Origin: Girardinichthys multiradiatus | Taxonomy: Eukaryota > Chordata > Actinopteri > Cyprinodontiformes > Goodeidae | Assembly: GCF_021462225.1 (NCBI RefSeq) | Contig: NC_061812.1 | Coordinates: forward strand, 40,887,675-40,951,674 | Length of the DNA: 64,000 nt | Reading direction: 5' to 3' | Shown: positions 10,830 to 61,929 of the stretch, piece after piece | How the letters are laid out: every line of letters starts with the position of its first letter | How positions within the stretch are numbered: the first letter of the stretch is position 1 | Notes under the pieces: generated by a model | The model's input: the letters and a program-made list of their open reading frames with translations, nothing else | What the model was told of the DNA's origin: nothing | Databases searched by the model: none | Program-made: the position numbers and the translations under genes

Positions 10830-12060
10830 GCGTATGAGTGAACTGTGGGAATCTCTACCAGAGAGCAACTCCTTCCCTCTCTCTCTCTCTCTCTCTCTCT
10901 GTCTTTGGCGTGATTCCCAGCCCATCTGCGGCCTGGCCTGCGGATTACTGTTTGTTAATGTTTCAATCAGCTGTGTGTTGAGGAATGTGGAGCTATTTAA
11001 CCTGAACTTCCCCAGGTGTGCCGAGGCGCCGCTCAGTCTGGGCCCCGCCGCCCTCTCCTGCCCTTGGCACAAAGCTATCACACAAACACAATCACACACT
11101 GGCCGCGCCGGGGCTGCAGCTGTGCGCATCGCACCGCAGGGAAATGGGAAAAACATTGCACCAGGGAGACAGAATAAATCTTAGAGCGAATTGCCTCGCC
11201 AAAGCTCGTTTTTTAACCGCTGAGGGAGAGAGAGAGGCCGAAACAGAGCTGCAGATTTACGTGATAACATATAGGAACAACACATTTAAATGGTGTGTTA
11301 TGACGTGAAACAAGCCCCCCTTTTAGATTATTATTGTCTTCTTTCCTTATAAACCTTTCTCTATCATTTTCACTCCTGTCGACTATTAAACTGAAGTCAT
11401 TTCGCTTAAAGTTTCAAACAGTCTGCCTATATTTACCAAGGGCTCCACTTCCTCAAGTAATGTGATACTTTAATGGCCCACAGAGAGGCAAATGAGCAAT
11501 TTAACTGCATGGATATGAGCCATTATGTTTACCACCAGCTGCGGTTGGATGTTACCTGCAAAACTGGCCCAAGGGATAAAAGATCCAAGCTGGTTCTGTT
11601 AATAAATTATAAGTATCTGACACACTAAATATTTGTGTTTTGGCCCTCCCATTGCTTGAAACTATTTTAAACTGGTGTTTAAAGTTTAGGAATAGGACAT
11701 AAAAATTTTAAAATCTTTGATATTTCAATTTCCCCCCAAAGTTTGCATTCCCTTTTTCGTAATGAGTATTTGACGTGCTGAAAGTTGGAGCTATAAGAGG
11801 TTTTATTAGAGCATCTATCAAGGATAACAAAAGTTCTACGAGTACAACATTTAAAATTTAGCAGAATATGTTTTTTGGGGATCAAAAACAACTGAAAAAT
11901 GGGTAATCACACCACGAGAAATATTTGCTTGTGTCTGTGCTGGAGTCACACTTCATGCGCATCATTACTGTCAATTAATATGACCAATCAAACATGCCTC
12001 TCACTCCTGAGTCTGCATTAAAGTTGTGCATGGGACACAACTGCCAGACTAAATAAGTAA
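10830..12060. promoter_or_regulatory. candidate regulatory region downstream of id1
   Basis: A GC-richer block (about 10905-11170) and a non-repetitive stretch (about 11450-11600) stand out from AT-rich surroundings. The block holds GGCGCC-N5-GTCTG at 11025-11040, E-box-like CAGCTG words and a (CT)n run at 10877-10900. Open frames on both strands here show no protein family and no splice logic, so I treat them as chance. Regulatory role is inferred from motif content and nearness to id1. Confidence 0.4.
11025..11040 (+). promoter_or_regulatory. Smad1/5-Smad4 bipartite motif GGCGCC-N5-GTCTG
   Basis: GGCGCC at 11025-11030, spacer GCTCA, GTCTG at 11036-11040. This fits the GRCGNC-N5-GTCT(G) arrangement described for BMP-receptor Smad and Smad4 co-binding. 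It lies about 1.5 kb beyond the id1 3' end. Confidence 0.45.
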
Positions 12061-13077: not shown

Positions 13078-13113
13078 TTAGCGGCACATTATCCTCTCTT
13101 CTGAGCAGCCATT
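13078..13113 (-). CDS. id1: id1 exon 2 (coding part, 11 codons plus stop)
   Basis: On the - strand a CCCCTTTGCAG acceptor is followed in phase 0 by codons for NGCSEERIMCR and TAA. The ending R-I-M-C-R-stop matches the DRILCR terminus of Id1 proteins. This fixes the true C-terminus: the frame running on past the exon 1 donor (to 13242) is intronic. Too short for ORF detection. Confidence 0.9.
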   Translation of the reverse strand, partial: NGCSEERIMCR

Positions 13114-13310
13114 CTGCAAAGGGGAAGGAAGAGAAGCTAGTGAGTGCATGTTGGTTACACATGGTAAACACATCTGTTTTCAGGCGCTTTTACGCACAGA
13201 TTGGCAACTTTACGCACACCTGCTTTCATGCAGTAAAAGCATTACAAACGTGCATCCTGCTTTATGGGAAGCTCTTGTCTAGTCTGCAACACGTGAGAGG
13301 AGATATTTAC
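13114..13310 (-). other. id1: id1 intron
   Basis: 197-nt intron with GTAAATATCT donor and TTTGCAG acceptor, phase 0. The position just after the helix-loop-helix and C-terminal linker is where id genes carry their coding intron. Confidence 0.9.
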
Positions 13311-13658
13311 CTCCACTGAGATGCTGGCGAGCTCTGCGTTCAGCGTGGTCAGCGGCGTGCGAGGGACCGAGTGCTGCTGGCGATTCTTCTCCGGCTCGTC
13401 CAGCTCGACCTGCAGGTCCCAGATGTAGTCGATGACGTGCTGCAGGATCTCCACCTTGCTCGCCTTTTTGTTGGTGGGCAGGGTGGGCACCAGCTCCTTC
13501 AGCTTGCTGTAGCAGCTGTTCATGTCCTGCAGGAAGACGCTCATCTGCTCGTCCAACAGCGGGATCTTGCATTTGGAGATGGCCAGGCTCTGCTCGGACA
13601 GGCCAATCTCTCCACCGACCTTGCTCTTCAGGGCGCAGGTAGATCCGACAACCTTCAT
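13311..13658 (-). CDS. id1: id1 (inhibitor of DNA binding 1) exon 1
   Basis: Encodes a nuclear HLH protein without a basic region, which dimerises with E proteins and stops them binding DNA. It is a classic immediate target of BMP signalling. The first ATG is at 13658 (MKVVGSTCALKSK, the Id1-type start); an in-frame GTG further upstream is not needed. Exon 1 gives 116 codons and exon 2 adds 11, for 127 residues. In order: an N-terminal tail with LSEQSLAISKCK, then the HLH at about residues 41-85, with helix 1 LLDEQMSVFLQDMNSCYSKL, loop VPTLPTNKKA and helix 2 KVEILQHVIDYIWDLQ. A variable tail ends in ASISVE before the donor. The CALK start and the C-terminus favour id1 over id2, id3 and id4. 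No defect seen. Confidence 0.96.
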
Positions 13659-13780: not shown

Positions 13781-13787
13781 CTTTATA
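13781..13787 (-). promoter_or_regulatory. id1: id1 TATA box TATAAAG
   Basis: On the - strand CCTATAAAGCCG sits about 125 bp above the ATG, with GC-rich flanks. Two inverted CCAAT boxes (CCAAT on the + strand at 13838-13842 and 13871-13875) and a GC/KLF-like CACGCCCCC lie just upstream, making a compact promoter. Confidence 0.75.
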
Positions 13788-13875: not shown

Positions 13876-15930
13876 GTCTGCACTCGGCTGGTTATCGGAA
13901 TTTACAATCTGTTTGAGGGATGGCGTTACAAATGGAAACAAATGTGTGTCTTTTATGGGTAATATGTGGGAATCCAGCTGTCCACGGCTTGGGGACTCTG
14001 CAGGTGTGGATTGCCTGGGGACAGTCAATGGGTGGTGAATGCTGGGCCATGCACTGTGAGAATGTGTGTGGGATGGGACGGAATGAATAGGATGAATGGT
14101 TAATGACAATTAGGCCGCCGCAGTGCCCCAGATTTGCCTTTGACAATTGTTGATGGGACTGCAGATGTGCCAGACAATGGTACAGTACATTTAGGGAATT
14201 AATCACACAGGCTGGAGAGAATGACCACCTTTTTCTAACAGGAGTTGTTCAGTATGATTGCTGAGCTGGCCCAAGGATGAAGAGAAATAAGCAGCAAGGG
14301 ACCAGCTCTAGACAGCTATGCTGGGGCAAAAGATCTTAATACAGTCTTATATATTTATTTATTTATTCATTTATTATAAATAACAATACACTATTATTAA
14401 TTAACATATGTTCACTCTGTAGTTGTCATCAATGTGCTCCAAACATACTAAAACTAGACATTGAAAATAAAATGAGAACAACACTTTATTATGTGCTCAA
14501 TGTATGGCCTAAATCCCACAATTCAAGTCTTCTTGATCCTTTTTATAAAACAATTTTCTCATTTCAAGTTGAAATAAACATTTTTGCAAACACGTTGGGA
14601 TCCAACTATAAAATATTTCCTAAATACTCTGAACTTTATAGAGCTTTGTGTTTAATATAACTGACATCACAATCCAGTCTCTTCTGCACAAACCTCACTA
14701 CATATAATTCTGTAGTCTATATTTCCCTCATAGTCTATTGTCAAGCAGTCGGACTTACTTGTAATATTTTAAAGGAGATATTTAGGTAACGTTGCTGGCC
14801 CAAAGGTCACAACTTTTATTAAAATATGATATGGAAATTTTACAGAGAACCCACCTCGGAGCACAAGTACCAGTAAAATGGATCTGGCAGCACCTAATAA
14901 AAAGCTTTTTTAAATCATTTCTCTGGCCGTGTTTCTTATTCTAATCGTCCATTTTAACCAGTAGATTGTTAAGCCTGCCTGAAAGAGTTCCCCCTCAGTA
15001 AAATCAGTCTGTGGAATACCTTTTTAATTTATACTCAACAACACAATGTTGTTTTTTTCACTAAGCAGGGTTACAGAGGGGCTTAACAAAACCATTACAA
15101 ATAATATTTTCATGGTGGCAGCTTTGTCTGAACTGTCTCTAACTGGGATTTATTCATTCATTTTCTTTGTTTAATCGTCGTTGCCGCACGGAGATCACAG
15201 ACCTCTTTTACAAGGAAGACCTTACAAAGATGACAGCAACACATTCTCATTTTGTCGCTCTGTAGAAATGTAGAAACCGGTGCATACAAACGCTTGGTAG
15301 CGCAAGGTTTTCAAATAAACTTTGCAAATAAAAAAATAAACAAAAAAATAAATAAATGGTCAAAGAGGAAAGAGCAGGGTTCAAAATAAATATAACATTT
15401 TTATTATTACAATTTGTGTTTTATCTTTCTTGCTATTTAATATGTAGATGGTGTGAGGTAACTGACGGGATAACAAATAAAAATGTATTTTTTGATTTAG
15501 TTAATTAAAGGAAGCCATTGCAGGCTCTTTAATAAACGATAACACAAATTGTTTTAAATCCAGAATGTGAAAACACTAAAACTGGAAGTTGGCCCCATAT
15601 CACATTCTGCCCTGAGCCCTGTGCAACTTTGGGCTGGCTCTGGCTGGTAGTGGCTTCTTTACTACCAGCCAGTGTATTGAACTGACCTGATCTTTCAGGA
15701 CATAGGAGCGTTGTGATCTGTTTTAGTGATCTGGAAAATTCATCCCAGTGTCACCGCTCTCTGGGTAAAATCTGTGGTTATTAAACTCAAAGCTTTCTTT
15801 ATGCTCACAAAAAGCACAGAGTCTCTATTTTGCGTTGAGCTGAAGGAGAGCCAGTGTGAGCAGCAGCTTCACGGATTCCTTCACATGTTTCTGCAGTGTG
15901 TGCTCAGCCTTGTGTGCACACGAACTCAGA
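13876..15930. other. id1 upstream flank
   Basis: No gene. A non-repetitive stretch near 14095-14220 contains GACAATTAGG, TTTGACAATTGTTGATGG and CCAGACAATGG and could be regulatory. From 14330 to 15600 it is AT-rich with A/T homopolymer and ATTT runs. Confidence 0.5.
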
Positions 15931-15994
15931 TCACATCGCTCTGTTCCGAGGCCTCCTCCTCCTCCTCCTCCCAGATTGTCCAAACAAGCCAGAG

Positions 15995-16010
15995 CAGACT
16001 GGCAGGCGCC
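15995..16010 (-). promoter_or_regulatory. Smad bipartite motif GGCGCC-N5-GTCTG (id1 sense strand)
   Basis: The + strand reads CAGAC, TGGCA, GGCGCC. The reverse complement is a perfect GRCGNC-N5-GTCTG match. Confidence 0.55.
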
Positions 16011-16017
16011 AGCGCGC

Positions 16018-16025
16018 TGACGTCA
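16018..16025. promoter_or_regulatory. full palindromic CRE/ATF site TGACGTCA
   Basis: Perfect eight-base palindrome eight bases from the Smad motif. Binds CREB/ATF family bZIP proteins. Confidence 0.55.
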
Positions 16026-16330
16026 CCCATTCATCCGAGCCTTGACGCCTGTCAGCCTGGCGCCGCTCGGGCGGTCTCCATGGAGATTTCAAACAAGAGG
16101 GCTTGCTCTCTGCAACTCCTCCATTCACCTGCGTGGAGGAGCAGCAGCCATGAGAACAAACCGGCTCCGGAGTTTTTTCTTTTTTTTCTCTTTTTTCCAT
16201 TTATCACCTTAAAGCAACGGGATGAGATTACCGCCCAGCGCACCTGCGGAGCAAAGCGCTGTCAGCCGGTTAACAGCGGGGCAACAAAGGAGGAAGGCTC
16301 CTCATTATGCTGTTTTAACAGGGAATAACT

Positions 16331-18016: not shown

Positions 18017-19623
18017 CAGGTCCTTCTCAAAATATTAGCATATTGTGATAAAATTCATTATTTTCCATAATGTCATGATGAAAATTTAACATTCATAAAT
18101 TTTAGATTCATTGCACACTAACTGAAATATTTCAGGTCTTTTATTGTCTTAATACGGATGATTGTGGCATACAGCTCATGAAAACCCAAAATTCCTATCT
18201 CACAAAATTAGTATATTTCATCCGACCAATAAAAGAAAAGTGTTTTTAATACAAAAAACGTCAACCTTCAAATAATCATGTACAGTTATGCACTCAATAC
18301 TTGGTCGGGAATCCTTTGGTAGAAATGACTGCTTCAATGCGGCGTGGCATGGAGGCAATCAGCCTGTGGCACTGCTGAGGTCTTATGGAGGCCCAGGATG
18401 CTTCGATAGCGGCCTTTAGCTCATCCAGAGTGTTGGGTCTTGAGTCTCTCAACGTTCTCTTCACAATATCCCACAGATTCTCTATGGGGTTCAGGTCAGG
18501 AGAGTTGGCCGGCCAATTGAGCACAGTGATACCATGGTCAGTAAACCATTTACCAGTGGTTTTGGCACTGTGAGCAGGTGCCAGGTCGTGCTGAAAAATG
18601 AAATCTTCATCTCCATAAAGCTTTTCAGCAGATGGAAGTATGAAGTGCTCCAAAATCTCCTGATAGCTAGCTGCATTGACCCTGCCCTTGATAAAACACA
18701 GTGGACCAACACCAGCAGCTGACACGGCACTCCAGACCATCACTGACTGTGGGTACTTGACACTGGACGTCTGGCATTTTGGAATTTCCTTCTCCCCAGT
18801 CTTCCTCCAGACTCTGGCACCTTGATTTCCGAATGACATGCAGAATTTGCTTTCATCCGAAAAAAGTACTTTGGACCACTGAGCAACAGTCCAGTGCTGC
18901 TTCTCTGTAGCCCAGGTCAGGCGCTTCTGCCGCTGTTTCTGGTTCAAAAGTGGCTTGACCTGGGGAATGCGGCACCTGTAGCCCATTTCCTGCACACGCC
19001 TGTGCACGGTGGCTCTGGATGTTTCTACTCCAGACTCAGTCCACTGCTTCCGCAGGTCCCCCAAGGTCTGGAATCGGCCCTTCTCCACAATCTTCCTCAG
19101 GGTCCGGTCACCTCTTATTGTGCAGCGTTTTCTGCCACACTTTTTCCTTCCCACAGACTTCCCACTGAGGTGCCTTGATACAGCACTCTGGGAACAGCCT
19201 ATTCGTTCAGAAATTTCTTTCTGTGTCTTTCCCTCTTGCTTGAGGGTGTCAATAGTGGCCTTCTGGACAGCAGTCAGGTCGGCAGTCTTACCCATGATTG
19301 GGGTTTTGAGTGATGAACCAGGCTGGGAGTTTTAAAGGCCTCAGGAATCTTTTGCAGGTGTTTAGAGTTAACTCGTTGATTCAGATGATTAGGTTCATAG
19401 CTCATTTAGAGACCCTTTTAATGATATGCTAATTTTGTGAGATAGGAATTTTGGGTTTTCATGAGCTGTATGCCAAAATCATCCGTATTAAGACAATAAA
19501 AGACCTGAAATATTTCAGTTAGTGTGCAATGAATCTAAAATATATGAATGTTAAATTTTCATCATGACATTATGGAAAATAATGAACTTTATCACAATAT
19601 GCTAATATTTTGAGAAGGACCTG
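18017..19623 (-). mobile_element. complete Tc1/mariner transposon (IR/DR type), 1607 bp
   Basis: Flanked by TA at 18015-18016 and 19624-19625. The outer ends CAGGTCCTTCTCAAAATATT and its reverse complement are exact. The terminal repeats run about 200 bp each. The inner part (TCTCACAAAATTAG) echoes the outer part (TCTCAAAATATTAG), as in the IR/DR layout that uses two transposase sites per end. The transposase inside is open. A near-identical copy begins at 63405. Confidence 0.92.
18294..19295 (-). CDS. Tc1-like transposase, intact, 333 aa
   Basis: Cut-and-paste transposase that binds its terminal repeats and inserts at TA. Two helix-turn-helix units form the paired-like DNA-binding part: the first at about residues 24-43 (QKEISERIGCSQSAVSRHL), the second at about 65-105, joined by a basic linker (GRKKCGRKRC). 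The catalytic triad is D147 (FSDESKF), D237 (FQHDLAPAH) and E272 (NPIENLWD). Exactly 34 residues lie between the second D and the E, so this is DD34E, diagnostic of the Tc1 branch. A 333-residue length is normal (about 340 for the family). No stop or frameshift, so it may be functional; expression is not shown. Confidence 0.93.
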   Translation of the reverse strand: MGKTADLTAVQKATIDTLKQEGKTQKEISERIGCSQSAVSRHLSGKSVGRKKCGRKRCTIRGDRTLRKIVEKGRFQTLGDLRKQWTESGVETSRATVHRRVQEMGYRCRIPQVKPLLNQKQRQKRLTWATEKQHWTVAQWSKVLFSDESKFCMSFGNQGARVWRKTGEKEIPKCQTSSVKYPQSVMVWSAVSAAGVGPLCFIKGRVNAASYQEILEHFILPSAEKLYGDEDFIFQHDLAPAHSAKTTGKWFTDHGITVLNWPANSPDLNPIENLWDIVKRTLRDSRPNTLDELKAAIEASWASIRPQQCHRLIASMPRRIEAVISTKGFPTKY

Positions 19624-52503: not shown

Positions 52504-54132
52504 CAGTGCCTTGCGAAAGTATTCGGCCCCCTTGAACGTTTCAACCTCTTGCCACATTTATGGCTTCAAACATAAAGATATAAAATTCAAATTTTTTGTG
52601 AAGAATCAACAACAAGTGGGACATAATCGTGAAGTGGAATGAAATTTATTGAATGTGTCAAACTTTTTTAACCAATAAAAGACTGAAAAGTGGGGCATGC
52701 AATATTATTCGGCCCCCTTGCGTTAATACTTTGTAGCGCCACCCGTTGCTGCCATTACAGCTGCAAGTCGATTGGGGTATGTCTCTATCAGTTTTCCACA
52801 TCGAGAGACTGAAATTCTTGCCCATTCTTCCTTGCAAAACAGCTTGAGCTCAGTGAGATTGGATGAGAGCGTTCGTGAACAGCAGTCTTCAGCTCTTTCC
52901 ACAGATTCTCGATTGAATTCAGGTCTGGACTTTGACTTGGCCCTTCCAACACCTGGATACGTTTATTTGTGAACCATTACATTGTAGATTTGGCTTTATG
53001 TTTTGGATCATTGTCTTGTTGGAAGATAAATCTCCGTCCCAGTCTCAGGTCTCTTGCAGACTCCAACAGGTTGTCTTCCAGAATGGTCCTGTATTTGGCC
53101 CCATCCATCTTCCCATCAATTTTGACCATCTTCCTTGTCCCTCCTGACGAAAAGCAGGCCCAAACCATGATGCTGCCACCACCATGTTTGACAGTGGGGA
53201 TGGTGTGTTCAGGGTGATGAGCTGTGTTGCTTTTATGCCAAACATATCGTTTTGCATTGTGGCCAAACAGTTCGATTTTGGTTTCATCTGACCAGAGCAC
53301 CTTCTTCCACATGTTTGGTGTGTCTCCCAGGTGGCTTGTGGCAAACGTTAAACGAGACATTTTATGGATATCTTTGAGAAATGGCTTTCTTCTTGCCACT
53401 CTTTCATAAAGGTCAGATTTGTGCAGTGTATGACTAATTGTTGTCCTATGGACAGACTCTCCCACCTCAGCTGTAGATCTCTACAGTTCATCCAGAGTGA
53501 TCATGGGCCTCTTGGCTGCATCTCTGATCAGTCTTCTCCTTGTTTGAGATGAAAGTTTAGAGGGACGGCCGGGTCTTGGAAGATTTGCAGTGGTCTGATA
53601 CTCCTTCCATTTCAATATAATTGCTTGCACAGTGCTCCTTGGGATGTTTAAAGCTTGGGGAATCTTTTTGTATCCAAATCCGGCTTTAAACGTCTCCACA
53701 ACAGTATCTTGGACCTGCCTGGTGTGTTCCTTGGTCTTCATAATGCTCTCTGCGCTTTGAACAGAACCCTGAGACTATCACAGAGCAGGTGCATTTATAC
53801 GGAGACTTGATTACACACAGGTGGATTCTATTTATCATCATCAGTCATTTGGGACAACATTGGATCATTCAGAAATCCTCACTGAACTTCTGGAGTGAGT
53901 TTGCTGCACTGAAAGTAAAGGGGCCGAATAATATTGCACGCCCCACTTTTCAGTTTTTTATTTGTTAAAAAAGTTTGACAAATCCAATAAATTTCATTCC
54001 ACTTCACGATTGTGTCCCACTTGTTGTTGATTCTTCACAAAACATTTGAATTTTATATCTTTATGTTTGAAGCGTGAAATGTGGCAAGAGGTTGAAAAGT
54101 TCAAGGGTGCTGAGTACTTTCGCAAGGCACTG
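52504..54132 (-). mobile_element. Tc1 transposon, full length (1629 bp), lightly broken
   Basis: TA at 52502-52503 and 54133-54134. The terminal repeats are about 215 bp (52504-52719 and 53918-54132), beginning CAGTGCCTTGCGAAAGTA at both ends, with some divergence. The structure is complete and only the transposase has point lesions. Confidence 0.9.
52720..53741 (-). pseudogene. Tc1 transposase pseudogene (two nonsense codons, late frameshift)
   Basis: Begins MKTKEHTRQVQD at 53741. The HTH, a GRPSK AT-hook-like linker, the second HTH and the catalytic part are all recognisable: D in LWSDETKIELF, D in FQQDNDPKHK and E in SIENLWKEL, with 34 positions between the last two. TAG at 53481-53483 and TAA at 52977-52979 are in-frame stops within one continuous frame. 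A frameshift follows near the C-terminus. The rest of the reading frame is well preserved, so loss was recent relative to the other relics. Confidence 0.85.
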
Positions 54133-60306: not shown

Positions 60307-61929
60307 CAGTACAGACCAAAAGTTTGGACACACCTTCTCATTCAAATAGTTTTCTTTATTTTCATGACTATGAATATTGTAGCTTCACACTGAATGCATC
60401 AAAACTATGAATTAACACATGTGGAATTGTATACTGAACAAAAAAGTGTGAAACAACTGAAAATATGTCTTATATTCTAGGTTCTTCAAAGTAGCCACCT
60501 TTTGCTTTAATTACTGCTCCGCACACTCTTGATATTCTGTTGATGAGCTTCAAGAGGTAGTCACCTGAAATGGTTTTCACTTCACAGGTGTGCCCTGTCA
60601 GGTTTAATAAGTGGGATTTCAAGCCTTATAAATGGGGTTGGGACCATCAGTTGTGTTGTGCAGGAGGTGGATATAGTACACAGCTGATAGTCCTACTGAA
60701 TAGACTGTTAGAATTTGTATTATGGCAAGTAAAAAGCAGCTAAGTAAAGAAAAACGAGTGGCCATCATTACTTTAAGAAATGAAGGTCAGTCAGTCCGAA
60801 CAATTGGGAAAACTTTGAAAGTGTCCCCAAGTGCAGTCGCAAAAACCATCAAGCGCTACAAAGAAACTGGCTCACATGAGGACCGCCCCAGGAAAGGAAG
60901 ACCAAGAGTCACCTCTGCTGCGGACAATAAGTTCATCCGAGTCACCAGCCTCAGAAATCGCAGGTTAACAACAGCTCAGATTAGAGAACAGGTCGATGCC
61001 ACACAGAGTTCTAGCAGCAGACACATCTCTAGAACAACTGTTAAGAGGAGACTGTGTGAATCAGGCCTTCATGGTAAAATAGCTGCTAGGAAACCACTGC
61101 TGAGGACAGGCAACAAGCAGAAGAGACTTGTTTGGGCTAAAGAACACAAGGATGGACATTAGATCAGTGGAAATCTGTGCTTTGGTCTGATGAGTCCAAG
61201 TTTGAGATCTTTGGTTCCAACTATTTTTTGTGCGGCGCAGAAGAGGTGAACAGATGGACTCTACATGCCTGATTCCCACCGTGAAGCATGGAGGAGGAGG
61301 TGTGATGGTGTGGGGGTGCTTTGCTGGTGACACTGTTGGGGATTTATTCAAAACCGAAGGCATACTGAACCAGCATGGCTACCACAGCATCTTGCAGCGG
61401 CATGCTATTCCATCCGGTTTGCGTTTAGTTGGACCATCATTTATTTTTCAACATGACAATGACCCCAAACACACCTCCAGGCTGTGTAAGGGCTATTTGA
61501 CCAAGAAGGAGAGTGATGGGGTGCTGCGCCAGATGACCTGGCCTCCAGTCACCGGACCTGAACCCAATCGAGATGGTTTGGGTGAGCTGGACCACAGAGT
61601 GAAAGTAAAAGGGCCAACAAGTGCTAAGCATCTCTGGGAACTCCTTCAAGACTATTGGAAAACCATTTCAGGTGACTACCTCTTGAAGCTCATCAACAGA
61701 ATGCCAAGAGTGTGTGGAGCAGTAATCAAAGCAAAAGGTGGTTACTTTGAAGAACCTAGAATATACGACATATTTTCAGTTGTTTCACACTTTTCTGTTC
61801 AGTATATAAGTCCACATGTGTTAATTCATAGTTCTGATGCCTTCAGTGTGAAGCTACAATATTCAAAGTCATGAAAATAAAGACAACTCTTTGAATGAGA
61901 AGGTGTGTCCAAATATTTGGTCTGTACTG
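60307..61929 (+). mobile_element. Tc1 transposon, full length (1623 bp), broken transposase
   Basis: TA at 60305-60306 and 61930-61931. The ends begin CAGTACAGACCAAAAGTTTG and its near-exact reverse. The terminal repeats are about 195-200 bp, reaching into the GTTCTTCAAAGTAGCCACC / GGTGGTTACTTTGAAGAAC pair. This is a third distinct Tc1 family in the window. Confidence 0.9.
60722..61874 (+). pseudogene. Tc1 transposase pseudogene with several small deletions
   Basis: The first 143 codons are open: MASKKQLSKEKR, HTH with SVRTIGKTLKVSPSAVAK, GRPR hook, second HTH. A one-base loss near 61152 shifts the frame and removes the segment with the first catalytic D. A second open stretch (61230-61874) carries TVKHGGGGVMVWGCF and the second D in FQHDNDPKH. 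Near 61546 two bases are missing and near 61581 one is missing, so the intervening S-P-D-L-N-P-I-E-type segment with the catalytic E is read out of frame. Inactive. Confidence 0.88.

What the first reader, a model, noticed from the sequence alone, without database searches (positions are those of the whole stretch)
15995..16077. Compact Smad plus ATF/CREB module upstream of id1, resembling the mammalian Id1 BMP-response element
Within 83 bp the sequence shows GGCGCC-N5-GTCTG on the id1 sense strand, a full TGACGTCA palindrome, GACGCC, the word CTGTCAGCCTGGCGCCG and a further GTCT. From established work, Id1 is a direct BMP/Smad1/5 target through GGCGCC/GTCT sites, and Smad3-ATF3 acts on an ATF site in ID1. 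From memory the 17-mer differs from the mouse element at one base. Inference: a BMP element conserved from fish to mammals that sits farther from the promoter here (about 2.3 kb).
Basis: partly seen in the sequence, partly recalled or inferred. Interest (0 to 1): 0.75.

Follow-up and report, generated by a model that had tools for sequence, protein, structure and literature searches.

The report
Ancient BMP-response switch upstream of id1
A short stretch of DNA upstream of the fish gene id1 closely matches the mammalian DNA switch that turns Id1 on when cells receive a BMP growth signal, and pieces of the same switch lie next to the sister genes id2 and id3 (more faintly id4), which suggests it is older than the split of this gene family.

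Summary
The 17-mer occurs once in the 1.15-Gb genome and matches the printed mouse Id1 BMP-response element at 16 of 17 bases. Window 16018-16034 (TGACGTCACCCATTCAT) equals the first 17 bases of a mouse "BRE Id1" ChIP-qPCR primer, found by searching papers with the fish word. The block is very probably the fish counterpart of the mammalian Id1 BMP element. That is known biology: zebrafish id1-CRM2 is described as conserved with mammals and Smad-dependent (original paper not held). The mouse oligo's CAGAC and AGAC are absent at the matching place; a perfect GGCGCC-N5-GTCTG lies across the CRE. New here: 107 GGCGCC-N5-GTCTG sites exist genome-wide, 7 of them at the four Id genes. TGAATGG-N(0-30)-GGCGCC-N5-GTCTG, a pattern written after the fact, occurs four times, once upstream of each Id gene. 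Flanking homology is solid for id1-id2, good for id1-id3, absent or weak for id4. An Id enhancer older than the paralogue split is likely. BMP response was not tested.

The parts
13242..13658 (-). id1 exon 1 open frame from the ATG at 13658 (splice donor read at about 13310)
   Evidence: ORF, HLH domain, ID-1 names, best PDB hits ID-2 then ID-1; ATG; donor by eye
13078..13113 (-). probable id1 exon 2 coding end (NGCSEERIMCR stop)
   Evidence: read directly; not tested by a tool
13782..13787 (-). TATAAA, likely id1 TATA box
   Evidence: read directly
15995..16010 (-). BMP-response site GGCGCC-TGCCA-GTCTG on the id1 sense strand
   Evidence: one of 107 in the genome
16018..16025 (.). full ATF/CREB palindrome TGACGTCA
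   Evidence: only one in the window
16018..16034 (+). TGACGTCACCCATTCAT, identical to the first 17 bases of a mouse Id1-BRE qPCR primer
16027..16033 (-). TGAATGG, a word shared by the upstream modules of the four Id genes found
16044..16049 (+). GACGCC, a further GC-type Smad-like word
   Evidence: read
16049..16065 (+). 17-mer CTGTCAGCCTGGCGCCG, 16/17 with the mouse Id1 BRE
16059..16086 (-). TCTCCATGGAGACCGCCCGAGCGGCGCC, 26 of 28 bases shared with the id2 module; X-box-like by eye
   Evidence: alignment; X-box label recalled, not tested
16074..16077 (+). GTCT (single Smad4-type word)
   Evidence: read
11025..11040 (+). second GGCGCC-N5-GTCTG, downstream (3') of id1

Best explanation
The block is the teleost counterpart of the mammalian Id1 BMP-response element (and, by the published description, of zebrafish id1-CRM2). 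When BMP receptors phosphorylate Smad1/5, a Smad1/5-Smad4 complex binds the GGCGCC and GTCTG words, above all the 5-base-spaced pair at 15995-16010, and raises id1 transcription from the TATA promoter about 2.25 kb away. The CRE between the two GGCGCC words lets CREB/ATF proteins set the response: cAMP or basal help, or ATF3-Smad3 repression under TGF-beta or stress. The module descends from an enhancer of the ancestral Id gene, because id2 and id3 still carry versions that align with it. Shown here: the words, their identity with printed mouse Id1 element sequences, genome-wide rarity and concentration at Id genes, alignment with the id2 and id3 modules. Inferred: protein binding, BMP dependence, the role of the CRE, action on the promoter, and common descent.
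For: Mouse identity at two places. The primer is for the mouse Id1 BRE, reported as enriched in SMAD4 ChIP; the SMAD4-bound Id1 region drives LacZ in limb buds (passages of PMC8714076). Zebrafish id1-CRM2 is described as conserved with mammals and needing Smad1/5 and Smad4 motifs, and its human counterpart as driving the same telencephalic pattern in zebrafish (passages of PMC8534405). A 2-base deletion in the 5-base spacer abolishes BRE response (passage of PMC3439458). GGCGCC-N5-GTCTG: 7 of 107 genome matches lie in 40 kb around the four Id genes, 0.004 expected if sites were spread evenly; within those 40 kb spacing 5 gives 7, spacing 1 gives 2, and the other spacings from 0 to 15 give 0. 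TGAATGG-N(0-30)-GGCGCC-N5-GTCTG: 4 matches in the genome, one upstream of each of the 4 Id genes found, all on gene sense; reversed control 0. id1-id2 alignment 33 against a maximum of 20 in 100 shuffles; with GGCGCC and GTCTG masked 21 against 14. id1-id3: 32 of 39 bases ungapped against 19-23 for 20 shuffles.
Against: No reporter, ChIP or accessibility data for this fish. CAGAC and AGAC of the mouse oligo are not kept at the matching place, and the score of the whole oligo was reached by 2 of 200 shuffles. No second fish DNA could be aligned. With Smad words masked, id1-id3 only equals the shuffle maximum (14). The id1-id4 module alignment is no better than shuffles (16, maximum 18), and the best id1 match in the id4 locus lies elsewhere; id2 and id3 do not find each other. 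A control locus with no Id gene found reached 17 (16 when masked), so scores under about 20 mean little. The TGAATGG pattern was written after seeing the four modules. The bare BRE word is only 107 against 65 for its reversed control, and Id loci are probably richer in GC than the even-spread estimate assumes. The 6-base-spacing genome control did not complete.
Confidence: 0.87

Rival explanations
1. The block is mainly a CRE-driven element: CREB/ATF binding at TGACGTCA is what selection keeps, and the GC-rich Smad words are a by-product of a CpG-rich stretch.
For: The CRE and 9 flanking bases are the best match among the mouse pieces seen (17/17). The local stretch is GC- and CpG-rich (0.60 and 0.74 at 15901-16100).
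Against: GGCGCC-N5-GTCTG sits upstream of all four Id genes found, with exact spacing, while the full CRE is present at id1 and id2, TGACGTC at id3, and no CRE at id4. Random sequence of the local composition gives 0.13 GGCGCC-N5-GTCT per 64 kb.
Confidence: 0.06
2. The 5-base-spaced sites act chiefly as silencers: Smad with a Schnurri-type protein represses, or Smad3-ATF3 represses id1 under TGF-beta or stress.
For: Schnurri can join R-Smads at this BRE (passage of PMC3439458). ATF3-Smad3 represses Id1 through a CRE (passages of PMC11063908 and PMC8975794).
Against: The published mammalian and zebrafish Id1 elements activate (passages). ATF3 repression is reported as a delayed phase in epithelial cells.
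Confidence: 0.05
3. Similarity to the id2, id3 and id4 modules is convergence: each gene gained BMP sites independently.
For: id2 and id3 modules do not find each other, and id4 shares only short words. BRE words alone can arise repeatedly.
Against: id1 and id2 align over 77 columns, also with the Smad words masked; id1 and id3 share 32 of 39 bases in register. TGAATGG is not a Smad word that I know of.
Confidence: 0.2
4. Chance or a dispersed repeat.
For: 46 of 48 genome rows for GGCGCC...CRE...GGCGCC belong to one dispersed repeat.
Against: The other two rows are id1 and id2 and are not that repeat; the 17-mer is unique; mouse matches at two places.
Confidence: 0.01

Closest known systems
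Mouse/human Id1 BMP-response element (Korchynskyi and ten Dijke 2002, not read; oligo printed in PMC3354957, passages)
   Same: Upstream of Id1; 17-mer 16/17; GACGCC next to it; CRE with 17/17 flank in the mouse BRE primer
   Different: Fish lacks CAGAC and AGAC at the matching place; GACGCC lies 9 bases closer; a perfect GGCGCC-N5-GTCTG stands beyond the CRE (whether mouse has it was not testable)
Zebrafish id1-CRM2 (Zhang et al. 2020, not held; described in PMC8534405, passages)
   Same: id1 enhancer conserved with mammals, Smad1/5 and Smad4 motifs
   Different: Its sequence and position were not available, so identity is inferred
BRE GACGCC/GGCGCC-N5-GTCTG of Xenopus id3 and of mouse and human Id2 (PMC3439458, passages; von Bubnoff 2005 and Nakahiro 2010 seen only as citations)
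   Same: Same words, same 5-base spacing
   Different: Here combined with TGAATGG and a CRE in a fixed order
Smad3-ATF3 repressor site in ID1 (Kang 2003, seen only as cited)
   Same: CRE with Smad proteins in the Id1 promoter region
   Different: Repression not tested; the position of that site was not compared

Membership tests
Vertebrate BRE (GACGCC/GGCGCC-N5-GTCTG) | GC-type Smad1/5 word | tested here: met
   GGCGCC 16005-16010
Vertebrate BRE (GACGCC/GGCGCC-N5-GTCTG) | GTCTG at a 5-base spacing | tested here: met
   15995-16010
Vertebrate BRE (GACGCC/GGCGCC-N5-GTCTG) | Response to BMP, Smad1/5 and Smad4 binding | not testable with these tools
   needs reporter and ChIP
Id1 BRE / id1-CRM2 orthologue | Lies upstream of an id1 orthologue | tested here: met
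Id1 BRE / id1-CRM2 orthologue | Sequence identity with the mouse element | tested here: met
   16/17 and 17/17 at two places; whole 43-base oligo weak
Id1 BRE / id1-CRM2 orthologue | CAGAC and AGAC of the mouse oligo at the matching place | tested here: not met
   so at most an orthologous but altered element
Id1 BRE / id1-CRM2 orthologue | Alignment with zebrafish CRM2 | not testable with these tools
   paper not held, no fish DNA collection
Smad3-ATF3 site of ID1 | CRE next to Smad words | tested here: met
Smad3-ATF3 site of ID1 | ATF3-dependent repression | not testable with these tools
   needs assays
Shared Id-paralogue module | TGAATGG then GGCGCC-N5-GTCTG upstream, gene sense | tested here: met
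   4 of 4 Id genes found, 4 of 4 genome matches; pattern chosen after seeing them
Shared Id-paralogue module | Alignable flanks beyond the Smad words | tested here: inconclusive
   id1-id2 yes; id1-id3 yes unmasked, masked equals shuffle maximum; id4 no

The most novel reading that the evidence does not exclude
The id1 block is the best-kept copy of one enhancer of the single ancestral Id gene: CCATGGA box - GCGGCGCC - TGAATGG - CRE - GGCGCC-N5-GTCTG. It was copied with the gene in the early vertebrate genome duplications and still marks id1, id2, id3 and probably id4, so that in this 1.15-Gb genome a short pattern picks out the four Id genes and nothing else. The CRE and the unassigned TGAATGG factor would be as old a part of Id control as BMP input. 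Three of the four genes also carry a second BRE downstream.
Probability: 0.6. Interest if true: 0.6.

Novelty: new member of a known kind. Interest (0 to 1): 0.48.

Why it matters
It supports from raw sequence that the element behind a widely used BMP reporter (BRE-luc) is kept between a teleost and mouse, and it shows which words survived. The sharing with id2 and id3 would date the Id-BMP link, with its CRE input, to before the paralogues split. It gives a short pattern to try for Id enhancers in other vertebrates, and it names one shared word, TGAATGG, for which I know no factor. The use is mostly for evolutionary and enhancer-grammar work; the BMP control of Id1 itself is well known.

Tried and rejected
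Repeat origin: the composite GGCGCC-CRE-GGCGCC pattern gave 48 genome rows, 46 from one dispersed repeat; the other two are id1 and id2, so a repeat origin was rejected. C13:18688065 has the same BRE spacer as id2, but no Id gene was found on that contig, the pattern does not match there, and the DNA around it shows no module by eye. Six further BRE sites outside Id loci were opened, of the 93 listed non-Id rows; by eye none lay beside a gene that I recognised as a BMP target, and one (L025) lay among transposon-like frames. So the bare BRE is not specific. Direct alignment of id2 with id3, and of id4 with id1 or id2 at better than shuffle level, failed. Downstream BREs of id1, id3 and id4 do not align beyond the core (scores 14 or less between genes, no shuffles run). 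A paper search with CRE/TGAATGG words of id1, id2 and id3 listed 2 papers: the mouse Id1 primer paper again and a lentivirus paper, not opened; both hit on the id1 word only. One search for papers holding Id1, Id2, Id3, Id4, GGCGCC and enhancer listed one Zeb2 paper, not opened. 'Not in print' is therefore not claimed.

Not done, because did not complete: genome counts of the mouse 17-mer with one mismatch, of TGACGTCANCCCATTCA, of the 6-base-spacing control, and of the MH2 family.

Full report
Setting. The window is part of contig C19 of a 1.15-Gb genome. The gene on the minus strand at 13242-13658 encodes an Id protein: HLH domain, ID-family PDB hits with ID-2 first and ID-1 next, and ID-1 of teleosts as the best named relatives, closest Cyprinodon tularosa at 98% (120 of 479 listed). 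A second short exon ending NGCSEERIMCR is readable at 13078-13113 and a TATAAA at 13782-13787 (by eye). The neighbour at 80-934 carries SRC-1 and DUF4927 domains, which I read as ncoa3 from memory.

Observation. Every word of the finding is present at its place. GGCGCC-N5-GTCTG at 15995-16010 is on the id1 sense strand; window-wide there are 2 such sites against 0.02 expected. The CRE at 16018-16025 is the only one in the window. In Markov sequence of window or local composition no GGCGCC-CRE-GGCGCC cluster arose in 60 runs each.

Mouse test. PMC3354957 prints the mouse Id1 BRE oligo (passage). The 17-mer matches it at 16 of 17 bases; the next best places in the window have 13. I then searched the paper library with six fish words from around the CRE and the BREs. 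Five papers held at least one. One of them, PMC8714076, holds TGACGTCACCCATT inside the reverse primer for 'BRE Id1' in mouse limb-bud SMAD4 ChIP-qPCR (passages); the primer shares its first 17 bases with window 16018-16034. The other four papers hit on two other fish words and were not opened; their titles are unrelated. If the BRE lies inside the amplicon, as the primer's name says, the mouse order is CRE, then GACGCC and the 17-mer, as in fish; the mouse DNA between was not seen. I did not know of this match beforehand, and it is the strongest evidence that the block is the same element. By contrast, a gapped alignment of the whole mouse oligo was matched or beaten by 2 of 200 shuffles, because CAGAC, AGAC and the bases between GACGCC and the 17-mer (9 fewer in fish) are not kept.

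Id family test. A protein search found four Id genes in the genome (4 matches, 39 candidates scored). By sequence I read them as id1, id2 (L010), id3 (L016) and id4 (L015); the names of the last three rest on my recall of the family. GGCGCC-N5-GTCTG occurs 107 times in the genome (52 forward, 55 reverse; reversed-word control 27 and 38), of which 100 rows are listed; 7 of them fall in the four 10-kb Id loci, where 0.004 are expected if spread evenly. In those loci spacing 5 gives 7 hits, spacing 1 gives 2, all other spacings from 0 to 15 give none. Upstream of each ATG, at 2352 (id1), 1943 (id2), 976 (id3) and 1089 bp (id4), one such site is on the gene sense strand.

Module test. At id1 and id2 the order on the sense strand is TCTCCATGGA(G/A)ACCGCC(C/T)GAGCGGCGCC, then TGAATGGG, TGACGTCA, GGCGCC-N5-GTCTG; at id3 TGAATGG, TGACGTC, GGCGCC-N5-GTCTG with the same spacing as id1; at id4 TGAATGG and GGCGCC-N5-GTCTG without a CRE. 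The pattern TGAATGG-N(0-30)-GGCGCC-N5-GTCTG has four matches in the genome, one per Id gene, and none for the reversed control. Because I wrote it after seeing the four, the fair statement is that none of the other BRE sites has TGAATGG there, while 4 of the 7 Id sites do (hypergeometric 7e-6, using 107 sites).

Limits of the homology. Local alignment of the id1 module with the id2 locus scores 33 (100 shuffles: mean 13, maximum 20) and still 21 with GGCGCC and GTCTG masked (maximum 14); with id3 28 (maximum 18), masked 14 (maximum 14); with id4 16 (maximum 18), and masked 12 at another place. Of two loci without an Id gene, one reached 17 and 16 and the other 13 and 12. In the all-pairs run with 2-base shuffles, id1-id2 and id1-id3 found each other in both directions; id2 and id3 did not; id3 to id4 scored 20 at the module, equal to the shuffle maximum; the best id1 match in the id4 locus (20, shuffle maximum 17) lay elsewhere; several others lay elsewhere too. 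So ancestry is well supported for id1-id2, good for id1-id3, and only suggested for id4.

Mechanism. Published work describes the BRE as Smad words plus a GGCGCC palindrome, a 5-base spacer that is required (PMC3439458, passages), Smad5 MH1 domains on GGCGCC (PMC5727232, passages), SMAD4 at the mouse Id1 BRE, and a zebrafish id1 enhancer conserved with mammals and dependent on Smad1/5 and Smad4 motifs (PMC8534405 and PMC7538694, passages). ATF3 with Smad3 represses Id1 through a CRE (PMC11063908, PMC8975794, passages). From these I infer that this block is a BMP-activated enhancer of id1 with a CREB/ATF input. Nothing in these calls measures binding or activity.

Verdict. Fish-to-mammal conservation of an id1 BMP enhancer is already known, so the block is a new member of a known kind. 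BREs in Id-family promoters are also known as such. The sharing of the composite module with id2 and id3, and the four-for-four genome pattern, is the part that would interest a specialist; I did not see it in the papers searched (listings and the passages read), which is a limited library.

Noticed in passing
window 11025-11040 (+): A second perfect GGCGCC-N5-GTCTG lies 2.0 kb beyond the id1 stop codon; id3 (L016 4020-4035) and id4 (L015 3165-3180) also have one downstream, so three of the four Id genes are flanked on both sides.
   Followed up: partly
window 18294-19295 (-): An uninterrupted 333-aa Tc1-type transposase frame (HTH_Tnp_Tc3_2, DDE_3) sits about 2.2 kb beyond the module.
   Followed up: no
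L002-L009 and further places: A dispersed repeat carries GGCGCC, a CRE and a TATATA-like word in 46 of 48 rows, on 18 contigs; it could scatter CRE and GC-type sites (three copies printed).
   Followed up: no
window 16027-16033; L010, L015, L016: TGAATGG stands in front of the BRE at all four Id genes found; I know of no factor that fits it well.
   Followed up: partly
window 52977-53465 and 60722-61874: Further Tc1-type transposase frames, apparently broken, judged by eye (only 60722-61162 was scanned).
   Followed up: no
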